Source: Flavobacteriales bacterium UBA4011 (GTDB lineage Bacteria > Bacteroidota > Bacteroidia > Flavobacteriales_D > Crocinitomicaceae). From it: a DNA stretch of 17,174 nt. The notes under the pieces were generated by a model. It had not been told where the DNA came from and did no database searches. It saw only the letters and a list, made by a program, of their open reading frames with translations. Location: NCBI GenBank assembly GCA_002384725.1, contig DGBF01000150.1:3720-20893 (forward strand), given 5' to 3'. Positions 4,738 through 9,812 of this stretch are shown piece after piece. The position numbers and the translations under genes are program-made. The first letter of the stretch is position 1. Every line of letters begins with the position of its first letter.

Positions 4738-7581
4738 TTACACTACAAAATTTACAATCTTACCAGGTACAATAATCACTTTTTTAGGTTCTTTTCCTTC
4801 CAAATATTTCTGCGTTTGTTCCATCGCAAGAATTTCTTTTTGCATATCTGGAATAGACATTGATTTATCCAAAGTTACTTTGAAACGCATTTTACCATTG
4901 AACGAAACCGGGTAATCGAAAGTAGATTCCACTAAATAACTTTCGTCAAATTTCGGGAAAGTCGTTTTTGAAACCGCTCCTGCAGGATTACCCAAAAGCG
5001 CCCACAACTCTTCAGCAATGTGCGGTGCAAAAGGCGATATCAAAGCAACCAATGGTTCCAAAACTTCTTTGTGCTTGCATTTTTGTTCCGTTAATTCGTT
5101 GACACAAATCATAAAACTGGAGACTCCCGTATGGAAAGAAAAACGATCCAAATCTTCGCCAATTTTCTTGATGGTCTTGTGCAAGGTTTTCATGCTTTCT
5201 TTGCTCGGTGCTTCGGTTGAAACAGCAAATTTATTGTCTGCATCGTGGAACAAACGCCACAGTTTACGTAAGAAGTTACTCACACCACTAATGCCTTGTG
5301 TATCCCATGGTTTGCTCTGTTCGAGTGGTCCAAGGAACATTTCATACATGCGCAAAACGTCTGCTCCGAACTTCTCTATCAAGTCGTCAGGAGTTTGAAC
5401 GTTGTATTTGGATTTGGACATTTTTTCGACTTCGTGCCCACAGATGTAGGTTCCGTCTTCTTCTAAAATGAATTCAGCATCTTTAAATTCTGGTCGCCAT
5501 TTTTTAAACGCTTCGATGTCCAGTTTGTCATTTTCAACGAAAGATATATCTGCATGCATAGCATCCGTTTTATATTCTTTTCTCATCAATTTCGAAACGA
5601 ACTTGTTCTCACCAGAAACTCGATAGACAAAACTACTACGCCCCAAAATCATACCTTGGTTGATCATTTTCTGAAACGGTTCTTCGAAAGGAATGTAATC
5701 CAAATCATTCAAGAATTTAGTCCAGAAACGTGAATACAACAAGTGCCCCGTAGCATGTTCTGCCCCACCGATGTACAAATCCACATTGTTCCAGTACTCC
5801 ACTTTTTCCTTAGCAACGAATTCGTTTTCGTTTTTCGGATCCATGTAGCGCAAGAAATACCACGAACTCCCCGCCCAACCTGGCATGGTATTGTACTCCA
5901 TTCTGTCGCCTTGAAATACATTCCAAGCGTCTTTTTCGGCTCTTGCCAAAGGTGGCTCGCCTTCTTCGGTTGGTAAATATTTATCTACTTCTGGAAGAAC
6001 GACAGGTAATTTGTCATCATCCAAAAGTTTCGGAATATCGTTTTCGTAGTAAACTGGGAACGGTTCCCCCCAATATCGCTGACGGGAGAAAATTGCGTCG
6101 CGCAAACGGTAATTCGTTTTCCCTTTTCCGATTCCTAGCTCTTCGATTTTATGAATCGCAAATTTCATGGCCTTTTTAATCGATAAGCCTGTGAGGAAAT
6201 CAGAATTGGCTATCGTTCCTTCTTTTTCGGCGTAAGCTTCTTCCGAAATATCTATTCCTTCGAAAATGTTGATAATCTCTATGTCGAAATGTTTGGCAAA
6301 ATCCCAATCGCGTTGATCGCCGCAAGGAACGGCCATTACTGCTCCAGTTCCGTAAGAAGCCAAAACGTAATCGCCTATCCAAATCTGTACCTTTTCACCC
6401 GAAAAAGGATGAATGGCATATGCCCCGGTGAATTGACCAGAAATATTTTTTACGTCTGACTGACGATCTCTTTCCGATTTCAGTGAGGCTTCTTTCTTAT
6501 ACGATTCGATTTTGTCTTTGTATTCAGCTGTGGTGATTTGATCAACCAAAGGATGTTCTGGAGCAAGAACCATGAAGGAAACGCCAAAAATGGTGTCGGG
6601 ACGGGTGGTGAAAACTTCGATATTGTGGTCTTCTACTCCGCTCAGACCACTTTCTCCAACAACCGCTGACTGAGTGGAGTCGAAGACATCGGTTGAGTTG
6701 TCTATGGCAACACTAAAACGTACCGAACAACCAACTGATTTTCCGATCCAGTTTCTTTGTATTTCCTTGATAGAATCCGTCCAATCAACCGTTTCTAAAC
6801 CGTCTAAAAGTCGCTGTGCGTATGCTTTTATTCGCATCGACCATTGTCGCATCAGTTTCTGCTCAACGAGATGACCGCCGCGTTCTGAAACGCCATTTAC
6901 GACCTCATCATTGGCCAAAACGGTACCCAATGAAGGACACCAATTCACCCATGAATCAGCCAAATAGGCCATTCGGTATTCTTGTAAAATGGTTTCTTTT
7001 TGTAGATCGGAAAAGTTTTTCCAATCTACCGAAGAAAAGGTGTCTTCGTAATCGGTACAGGCATTTATTCTTTCATTTCCATTTGTCTCGAAACTAGAAA
7101 TCAAGGTTTCTATCCGTTCTGCTTTTTGCGTGTCATTGTTGAACCAAGCGTCAAATAATTGTTTGAAAATCCATTGGGTCCATTTATAATATTTAGGCGA
7201 AGAAGTACGCACTTCTCTATCCCAGTCATAACAGAAACCCATTTTATCCAATTGCTCTCTATATCGGGCAATGTTTGTCTCAGTTGTTATCGCTGGATGC
7301 TGTCCCGTTTGTATTGCATATTGTTCAGCTGGCAAACCAAATGAATCATATCCCATAGGGTGTAAAACATTGAACCCTTGAAGCTTTTTATACCTAGAAA
7401 AAATATCTGAAGCAATATAGCCGAGTGGGTGCCCAACATGGAGACCTGCACCAGAAGGATAAGGAAACATATCCAAAACATAATATTTCGGTTTGCTTGT
7501 ATCTTCTAAAACTTGGTACGTGTGATTCTCCGCCCAATGCTTGCGCCATTTTTCTTCGTTTTCGATAAAATTATACTCCAT
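4738..7581 (-). CDS. leuS: Leucyl-tRNA synthetase
   Basis: This cytoplasmic class I aminoacyl-tRNA synthetase (947 residues) charges tRNA-Leu with leucine. The HIGH motif is HVGH at residues 48-51 within 'MFPYPSGAGLHVGHPLGY'. The KMSKS motif is intact at 720-724. The CP1 editing domain carries 'TTRPDTIFG' (threonine-rich site) and 'GTGAVMAVPCGDQRDWDFAKHF', with the conserved Asp that holds the misactivated amino acid. 'NYRLRDAIFSRQRYWGEPFPV' and 'SSWYFLRYMDP' are further LeuRS signatures. The C-terminal anticodon-binding helices and the short C-terminal domain ('KKVIIVPGKIVNFVV') are present, so the gene is full length. The oddity is codons 299-318, an extra 20 residues directly before 'HNIEVFTTRPDTIFG', encoded by a palindromic REP-like element (see the repeat entry). 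The catalytic core is unaffected, so the enzyme is probably functional. It stands alone, with no obvious operon partner. Confidence 0.97.
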   Translation of the reverse strand: MEYNFIENEEKWRKHWAENHTYQVLEDTSKPKYYVLDMFPYPSGAGLHVGHPLGYIASDIFSRYKKLQGFNVLHPMGYDSFGLPAEQYAIQTGQHPAITTETNIARYREQLDKMGFCYDWDREVRTSSPKYYKWTQWIFKQLFDAWFNNDTQKAERIETLISSFETNGNERINACTDYEDTFSSVDWKNFSDLQKETILQEYRMAYLADSWVNWCPSLGTVLANDEVVNGVSERGGHLVEQKLMRQWSMRIKAYAQRLLDGLETVDWTDSIKEIQRNWIGKSVGCSVRFSVAIDNSTDVFDSTQSAVVGESGLSGVEDHNIEVFTTRPDTIFGVSFMVLAPEHPLVDQITTAEYKDKIESYKKEASLKSERDRQSDVKNISGQFTGAYAIHPFSGEKVQIWIGDYVLASYGTGAVMAVPCGDQRDWDFAKHFDIEIINIFEGIDISEEAYAEKEGTIANSDFLTGLSIKKAMKFAIHKIEELGIGKGKTNYRLRDAIFSRQRYWGEPFPVYYENDIPKLLDDDKLPVVLPEVDKYLPTEEGEPPLARAEKDAWNVFQGDRMEYNTMPGWAGSSWYFLRYMDPKNENEFVAKEKVEYWNNVDLYIGGAEHATGHLLYSRFWTKFLNDLDYIPFEEPFQKMINQGMILGRSSFVYRVSGENKFVSKLMRKEYKTDAMHADISFVENDKLDIEAFKKWRPEFKDAEFILEEDGTYICGHEVEKMSKSKYNVQTPDDLIEKFGADVLRMYEMFLGPLEQSKPWDTQGISGVSNFLRKLWRLFHDADNKFAVSTEAPSKESMKTLHKTIKKIGEDLDRFSFHTGVSSFMICVNELTEQKCKHKEVLEPLVALISPFAPHIAEELWALLGNPAGAVSKTTFPKFDESYLVESTFDYPVSFNGKMRFKVTLDKSMSIPDMQKEILAMEQTQKYLEGKEPKKVIIVPGKIVNFVV
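6628..6687. repeat. REP-like palindromic element inserted in frame in leuS
   Basis: Two 18-bp arms, 6628-6645 and 6670-6687, form an inverted repeat (16 of 18 positions match) around a 24-nt centre. Each arm contains a version of CTTCGACTCCGCTCAG with one change: the left arm reads CTTCTACTCCGCTCAG, and the right arm read in reverse is CTTCGACTCCACTCAG. This type of motif (TTCGAC-nnn-GCTCAG) is, from general knowledge, an abundant interspersed palindromic repeat in Bacteroidota and other genomes, usually between genes. Here the 60-bp unit equals exactly codons 299-318 of leuS, read as FDSTQ ... LSGVED. E. coli LeuRS has only a short turn at this place before the TTRPDT motif. Confidence 0.7.
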
Positions 7582-9760: not shown

Positions 9761-9812
9761 AAAGGGCGATTCAAATTCTGGTAGCTATCGGAATCAGAAT
9801 CGCCCTTTTTTT
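9761..9812 (+). terminator. Intrinsic terminator of the YceI-like gene
   Basis: AAAGGGCGATTC (9761-9772) pairs perfectly with GAATCGCCCTTT (9797-9808) and is followed by a run of T to 9812. The 24-nt loop can form an additional small stem. The T-run abuts the -7 box of the next gene, so the terminator and the next promoter overlap. Confidence 0.85.

What the first reader, a model, noticed from the sequence alone, without database searches (positions are those of the whole stretch)
6628..6687. Palindromic REP-like element embedded in frame in the leuS editing domain
A 60-bp inverted repeat (18-bp arms, 16/18 matched, 24-nt centre) sits inside leuS and supplies exactly 20 codons (299-318). Each arm differs by a single base from CTTCGACTCCGCTCAG, so both look like drifted copies of one perfect palindrome arm. 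That motif type is, as I recall, an abundant interspersed repeat in Bacteroidota, normally intergenic. E. coli LeuRS has only a short turn at this place, just before the TTRPDT editing motif, so the segment looks like an insertion tolerated as protein. It parallels the Rickettsia palindromic elements that insert in frame into genes. If the same repeat occurs in other genes of this genome, this could be a protein-inserting palindromic element family in Bacteroidota.
Basis: partly seen in the sequence, partly recalled or inferred. Interest (0 to 1): 0.72.

Follow-up and report, generated by a model that had tools for sequence, protein, structure and literature searches.

The report
Mobile DNA hairpin translated inside LeuRS
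A short hairpin-forming repeat, normally found between genes, sits in frame inside the gene for an essential enzyme, leucyl-tRNA synthetase, at a loop that many related bacteria have filled with other repeats or even a whole nuclease, which points to an overlooked kind of mobile DNA that its host simply translates.

Summary
Window 6628-6687 is a head-to-head pair of REP-like hairpin units (12-nt core TCGACTCCGCTC, variable self-complementary stems), read in frame as LeuRS residues 299-318. The genome holds other copies, mostly intergenic. Two same-genus relatives have 17 residues where the window has 40; a third has a different 37.

The turn is a hotspot: 64 of 146 parsed genomes have 20-241 residues there, from several unrelated repeat families. 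In 80 leuS genes, units of this type occur at the turn in 6 and elsewhere in leuS in none.

The repeats have partners. Such units flank small GIY-YIG nuclease genes (8 of 30 loci; 0 of 30 S23 and 0 of 30 Y1-transposase loci from the same genomes). CCCTCC/GGAGGG hairpins flank DUF559 (Vsr-like) nuclease genes. Across Bacteroidota, DUF559 domains with such hairpins lie in frame inside LeuRS (same turn), MetH, RecG, methylmalonyl-CoA mutase and restriction enzymes; 22 of 23 in non-restriction hosts form one clade that partly sorts by host gene.

I propose that the window copy is a non-autonomous unit spread by a GIY-YIG nuclease and kept because the loop tolerates it. Cleavage and mobility are inferred, not shown.

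The parts
4738..7581 (-). leuS, leucyl-tRNA synthetase, 947 aa; host gene of the insert
   Evidence: ORF; Pfam LeuRS editing domain PF13603 and other tRNA synthetase domains; solved LeuRS as best sequence and fold matches
6628..6687 (-). 60-bp palindromic insert, residues 299-318 (VFDSTQSAVVGESGLSGVED)
   Evidence: arms 16/18 complementary; absent from the LeuRS of G003 and G004
6625..6650 (+). hairpin unit 1: stem GTGGTCT/AGACCAC (7 bp) around core TCTACTCCGCTC (6632-6643)
6665..6690 (-). hairpin unit 2: core GAGTGGAGTCGA (6672-6683) with an imperfect stem
   Evidence: 8 of the first 10 flanking pairs are Watson-Crick
6622..6714 (-). variable turn of the CP1 editing domain, residues 290-320, the insertion hotspot
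   Evidence: length variation in 146 genomes; pLDDT under 50 at residues 296-317 between strands 281-293 and 320-325

Best explanation
The 60-bp segment is a non-autonomous mobile element: two hairpin units, head to head, of a REP-like family with core TCGACTCCGCTC. Shown: other copies in this genome; absence from two same-genus LeuRS; an open frame through it; a turn that is a recurrent target of several repeat families; units of this family flanking small GIY-YIG nuclease genes in other genomes. Inferred: a GIY-YIG nuclease that recognises the unit (or a target like it) cuts DNA, and the unit is copied into the break during repair; a copy in the CP1 turn survives because it keeps the frame in an exposed loop; the 20 residues have no function of their own. 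The same turn also accepts DUF559-linked repeats and, in five LeuRS seen here, a whole DUF559 domain, so 'repeats plus nuclease' would be the autonomous form and 'repeats alone' the reduced form.
For: Copies; core in 61 of 240 family genomes, 2 control hits in all. Hotspot: 64 of 146 genomes with 20 or more residues; in 80 public leuS genes A-type units (either core) at the turn in 6 and elsewhere in 223,692 bp of leuS in 0; 5 of 6 core matches in 889,426 bp of leuS loci are at the turn; fewest changes 7, 3 and 20 on the tree. Hairpin nature: 5.37 of 8 flanking positions pair against 3.34 +/- 0.13 in re-pairings, 68 units. Partner: A units within 400 bp of GIY-YIG genes in 8 of 30 loci, both sides in 5; S23 loci of the same 40 genomes 0 of 30, Y1-transposase loci of the same genomes 0 of 30. 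Class-wide set: 23 of 30 GIY-YIG loci share a repeat of 14 nt or more between flanks, 6 with the A core on both sides.
Against: 22 of 30 GIY-YIG loci have no A unit; most of these have other repeats or tRNA genes beside them. The 40 genomes were picked mostly for carrying the core, and the 30 loci are the best-scoring. The window genome has 3 GIY-YIG matches, of which one (long, UvrC-like) was listed, so no partner was seen in it (83% complete). No cleavage, mobility or target duplication is shown. The tree cannot tell gain from loss. LeuRS varies in length at other loops too.
Confidence: 0.73

Rival explanations
1. Classical REP: the units are moved by a RAYT/Y1 (HUH) transposase, and their nearness to GIY-YIG genes is a by-product of shared intergenic islands.
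For: REP-RAYT pairs are the known engine for such palindromes (recalled; RAYTs are treated in PMC3733652). 27 of 40 genomes have a Y1_Tnp match.
Against: A units lie within 400 bp of 0 of 30 Y1 loci, and 13 of 40 genomes have no Y1 match, among them the window genome and A-rich near-complete ones such as G168 (28 copies) and G012 (8).
Confidence: 0.12
2. Selected insert: the extra residues or the mRNA hairpin do something for LeuRS (editing, tRNA contact, pausing), and the hotspot reflects benefit, not tolerance.
For: The same turn is extended again and again; the mRNA folds somewhat better than shuffles (z -2.4).
Against: 82 of 146 genomes do without; the inserts differ in sequence, frame, orientation and length, and the modelled segment has low confidence, as an unstructured loop would.
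Confidence: 0.1
3. Assembly artefact in a draft genome.
For: Draft genome: 211 contigs, 82.7% complete.
Against: Inserts at the same turn occur in many assemblies, including single-contig or near-closed ones (G096, G013, G291), and the window ORF is intact.
Confidence: 0.03

Closest known systems
Rickettsia palindromic elements (RPE)
   Same: Dispersed palindromes inserted in frame in genes for working proteins (described in PMC3733652, passages and section 15).
   Different: Other phylum and, as far as I recall, other sequences (not compared); here a loop of one enzyme is hit by several unrelated repeat families, and nuclease partners are seen.
GTAG- and CGTC-tagged REPs (PMC3733652)
   Same: Short hairpins, often as dimers, mostly intergenic, some intragenic, with tRNA synthetases among the hosts and one recB site used in two Xanthomonas.
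   Different: No constant GTAG or CGTC foot in the 60 units printed; the partner here is a GIY-YIG or DUF559 nuclease and not a RAYT.
Inteins and free-standing homing endonuclease genes
   Same: Nuclease domains at conserved sites of housekeeping genes; one lineage per host site for MetH.
   Different: No intein domain in the Pfam scans of the DUF559-bearing frames; the reading frame runs through the nuclease, so no splicing is needed.
Coding palindromes of Nematomorpha mitochondria (PMC6649704; listing and abstract start only)
   Same: Inverted repeats inside protein-coding genes.
   Different: Mitochondrial, up to 284 bp, perfect; no nuclease partner mentioned in what I saw.

Membership tests
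REP (general sense) | Short hairpin-forming repeat in several copies, mainly intergenic | tested here: met
   9 places in the genome, 7 intergenic; in other genomes 2 of 30 loci are inside an open frame, 4 near an end of one; stems pair beyond chance
REP (GTAG/CGTC superfamilies) | GTAG or CGTC tetranucleotide at one foot | tested here: not met
   by inspection of the 60 units printed; no count was made
REP-RAYT | Association with a Y1/RAYT transposase gene | tested here: not met
   0 of 30 Y1 loci have an A unit within 400 bp; 13 of 40 genomes, the window's included, have no Y1 match
Rickettsia palindromic element | In-frame insertion in a conserved gene | tested here: met
Rickettsia palindromic element | Sequence kinship with RPE families | not tested
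   no RPE sequence was compared
GIY-YIG-linked mobile element | Units of the same family on both sides of a nuclease gene | tested here: met
   5 of 30 and 6 of 30 loci for the A core; not seen in the window genome itself
GIY-YIG-linked mobile element | Nuclease cuts the unit or its target | not testable with these tools
   needs protein work
Intein (for the DUF559 inserts) | Splicing domain around the nuclease | tested here: not met
   Pfam scans of 38 DUF559-bearing frames list none (E up to 1e-5 or 1e-8)
MITE | Target-site duplication | not tested
   no close filled/empty pair was aligned at base level for this

The most novel reading that the evidence does not exclude
Bacteroidota carry a class of mobile elements made of a small nuclease (GIY-YIG or DUF559/Vsr-like) bounded by its own hairpin repeats. 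One DUF559 clade lives in frame, unspliced, inside housekeeping enzymes, its lineages tending to keep to one conserved host site (LeuRS CP1 turn, a second LeuRS loop, MetH, RecG, methylmalonyl-CoA mutase), so that an essential protein carries and expresses the endonuclease that spreads it. The dispersed palindromes of these genomes, the window's included, are the reduced, non-autonomous forms.
Probability: 0.55. Interest if true: 0.93.

Novelty: new variant of a known kind. Interest (0 to 1): 0.84.

Why it matters
It gives dispersed palindromic repeats of environmental bacteria a candidate engine other than RAYT transposases, with nuclease-repeat pairs that can be tested one by one. It shows an essential enzyme whose loop repeatedly takes up mobile DNA as protein. 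Unspliced nucleases inside LeuRS, MetH and RecG would be a way for selfish genes to persist without breaking their host, and a source of new protein parts.

Tried and rejected
Target-derived stems: I thought the stem might be an inverted copy of the LeuRS flank (GTTGAT, the V-D codons, in G155 and G165). Intergenic units use the same GTTG/CAAC stems, so I dropped it.

S23/IVP genes (PF05635) as partners of the AATTGCAGATT repeats: 2 of 30 loci, not supported; these loci then served as control. At 12 nt the shared-flank measure is noisy (S23 10 of 29, random windows 13 of 160), so I rest on 14 nt; Y1 loci reach 10 of 28 at 14 nt, so sharing alone does not mark these elements.

The repeat finder missed the palindrome. 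Rfam: no match in 5 sources. Repeat class C is loose (two of its 14 rows have native length) and the patterns for class B are broad. L290 looked RHS-like to me, but Pfam lists no family. L475 was labelled restriction-modification from its flanks for the tree, but Pfam finds only DUF559 in that frame.

Papers: 10 searches. No paper holds any of six arm strings; 14 hold 'DUF559', of which I saw passages of one (PMC12907096). None of the listings showed these nuclease-repeat pairs by title or abstract start; the library lacks bioRxiv and most subscription journals.

Full report
What is in the window. The leuS gene (4738-7581, minus strand, 947 aa) contains at 6628-6687 an inverted repeat with 18-nt arms, 16 of 18 complementary, and a 24-nt centre. 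It reads in frame as residues 299-318. Each arm is one mismatch from CTTCGACTCCGCTCAG; 0.04 such matches are expected and none of 200 shuffles had two. The AlphaFold2 model (mean pLDDT 75, pTM 0.61; 47 rows) has residues 296-317 under pLDDT 50 between strands 281-293 and 320-325 and matches LeuRS structures best, TM-score about 0.7.

It is an insertion. The genome (G000, 2.25 Mb, 211 contigs, 82.7% complete) has 12 arm matches at up to 2 mismatches in 9 places and none for the reversed pattern. Seven places lie between genes, one is leuS, one a weak match in a helicase that looks native. Of four same-genus genomes, G004 and G003 (LeuRS 82 and 77% identical) have 17 residues between NWIGKS and VFTTRPDT against 40 here; G001 has 37 of a kind I could not assign; G002 has no LeuRS in its assembly.

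The unit. Each arm is a small hairpin: a 12-nt core TCGACTCCGCTC in a stem whose sequence varies but stays self-complementary. In 68 non-redundant units (of 84) 5.37 of the first 8 flanking positions pair, against 3.34 +/- 0.13 (maximum 3.75) in 2000 re-pairings. Stems of L267 and L269 are perfect over 12 bp with unrelated sequences. TTCGACTCCGCTCA occurs in 61 of 240 family genomes (reversed control: 2 hits in all). Of 30 loci, one per genome, 2 are inside an open frame, the LeuRS of G012 and a 1004-aa frame of G107 without a Pfam family; 4 are near an end of one and 24 outside.

The turn is a hotspot. The family search (240 genomes, 225 with a match), 75 re-located genomes and earlier loci, eight of them from other families of the order, gave 146 parsed sites: 82 with 16-18 residues, 64 with 20-241. 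Seventy-nine further family genomes with matches of 570-576 bp, the uninserted length, were not fetched. Inserts include this core in several frames and both orientations (10 genomes), a sister core TTCGAGTGCCTCAG (3) and CCCCCTTTGGAGGGGG-type units read as PLWRGTEGE or PPLSPFKGGE (25, one of them also with this core). The patterns are loose; 15 further rows were left unassigned. The fewest changes on a tree of the flanking residues are 7, 3 and 20, which cannot tell gain from loss. In 80 public leuS genes A-type units (either core) occur at the turn in 6 and in the other 223,692 bp of leuS in none; B units in 7 against 1 hit. LeuRS varies in length at other loops too.

Partner nucleases. I used 26 of the 30 DUF559 (PF04480) loci, leaving out two at contig ends and two weak helicase hits. 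CCCTC..GAGGG hairpins lie within 400 bp in 22 of 26, on both sides in 15; in GIY-YIG loci 2 of 30, S23 loci 0 of 30, background 10 in 507,663 bp. The core CCCCCTTTGGAGGGGG is exact in 81 of 240 family genomes, control 0. A units: GIY-YIG loci 8 of 30, both sides 5; S23 0 of 30; DUF559 0 of 26; background 0; Y1-transposase loci 0 of 30. GIY-YIG, S23 and Y1 loci come from the same 40 genomes, picked mostly for carrying the core; the DUF559 loci come from another set of 59, so that control is not matched. Other GIY-YIG genes have their own cores of like build, such as TTCGAGAGCCTCAG and TTCGAGTGCCTCAG; a second kind lies beside tRNA genes (9 of 9 loci checked have one). A repeat of 14 nt or more is shared by both flanks in 22 of 29 GIY-YIG, 14 of 26 DUF559, 4 of 29 S23, 10 of 28 Y1 loci and 4 of 160 random windows. 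A class-wide GIY-YIG set (30 best-scoring loci of 295 genomes) gave 23 of 30; the A core is on both sides in 6.

Nucleases in frame inside host proteins. The LeuRS of G023 carries at the same turn 241 residues with tandem repeats and a DUF559 domain in a 1276-aa frame. DUF559 also lies inside MetH (L293), a SpoIIE-type protein (L300) and an Eco57I-like enzyme (L383). In 296 genomes drawn from the phylum, 125 have DUF559; of the 150 matches listed (best first; more were not), 34 lie in frames of 600 aa or more. All 34 were fetched and scanned with Pfam: LeuRS 7 (4 at the same turn, 3 before TMPGWAGSSW), MetH 4, RecG 4, methylmalonyl-CoA mutase 2, UvrD-like helicase 2, a GATase_5 protein with the domain at its C-terminus 1, restriction-modification proteins 13, unresolved 1 (L475). 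One restriction protein (L483) also holds a GIY-YIG domain in frame. Hairpins of a looser pattern lie upstream in 32, downstream in 27, on both sides in 25 of 34, against 27 of 544 control windows. In a tree of 73 DUF559 rows, 22 of 23 from non-restriction hosts fall in one 24-row group (SH-aLRT 96) with two stand-alone genes; the five MetH rows group together (95), four of five LeuRS-turn rows group with one UvrD row (97), and the four RecG rows, two of them near-copies, lie in an open group with a stand-alone gene (81) (quick method, few columns, 32 of 70 inner branches open).

Mechanism. Shown: anatomy, absence in relatives, hotspot, specific nuclease association, in-frame nuclease insertions. 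Inferred: cutting by the partner nuclease, copying of the hairpin into the break, survival at the CP1 turn through tolerance. The check for Y1 transposases was run late and weakens the RAYT rival; my odds moved by one hundredth.

Known work. PMC3733652 (passages and section 15 read) reports intragenic REPs, tRNA synthetases among them, and a recB site used in two Xanthomonas. So in-frame REPs are known. The multi-family hotspot, the GIY-YIG and DUF559 pairing and the in-frame DUF559 clade did not appear in the listings of my ten searches.

Noticed in passing
L331, L344, L346, L348, L349, L350, L352, L328, L335: Another kind of small GIY-YIG gene lies close to a tRNA gene, with direct repeats of up to 59 nt on its two sides that include tRNA 3' sequence, as if it targets tRNA genes.
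   Followed up: partly
L318 1501-1698 (G000 contig C164): The window's own genome has a broken DUF559 gene (one stop in the match) with a CTCCCTCCTTGAGGAGGGA hairpin upstream.
   Followed up: no
L483: A type I restriction subunit carries both a GIY-YIG and a DUF559 domain in frame.
   Followed up: partly
G096 contig C1, e.g. 677119-677243 and 1738659-1738783: CCCCCTTTGGAGGGGG units recur as inverted pairs about 109 bp apart, like a short non-autonomous element.
   Followed up: no
L290 around 1501: The core read as FDSAQ lies inside a 1004-aa open frame of G107 without a Pfam family; it looked RHS-like to me.
   Followed up: partly
L294: The G023 LeuRS also has a repeat-like stretch (TTPLSFGEGQGERYGEGEQ) at a further loop downstream of the turn.
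   Followed up: no
window 9761-9808: Inverted repeat of 24-nt arms (83% complementary, no loop) between two genes.
   Followed up: no
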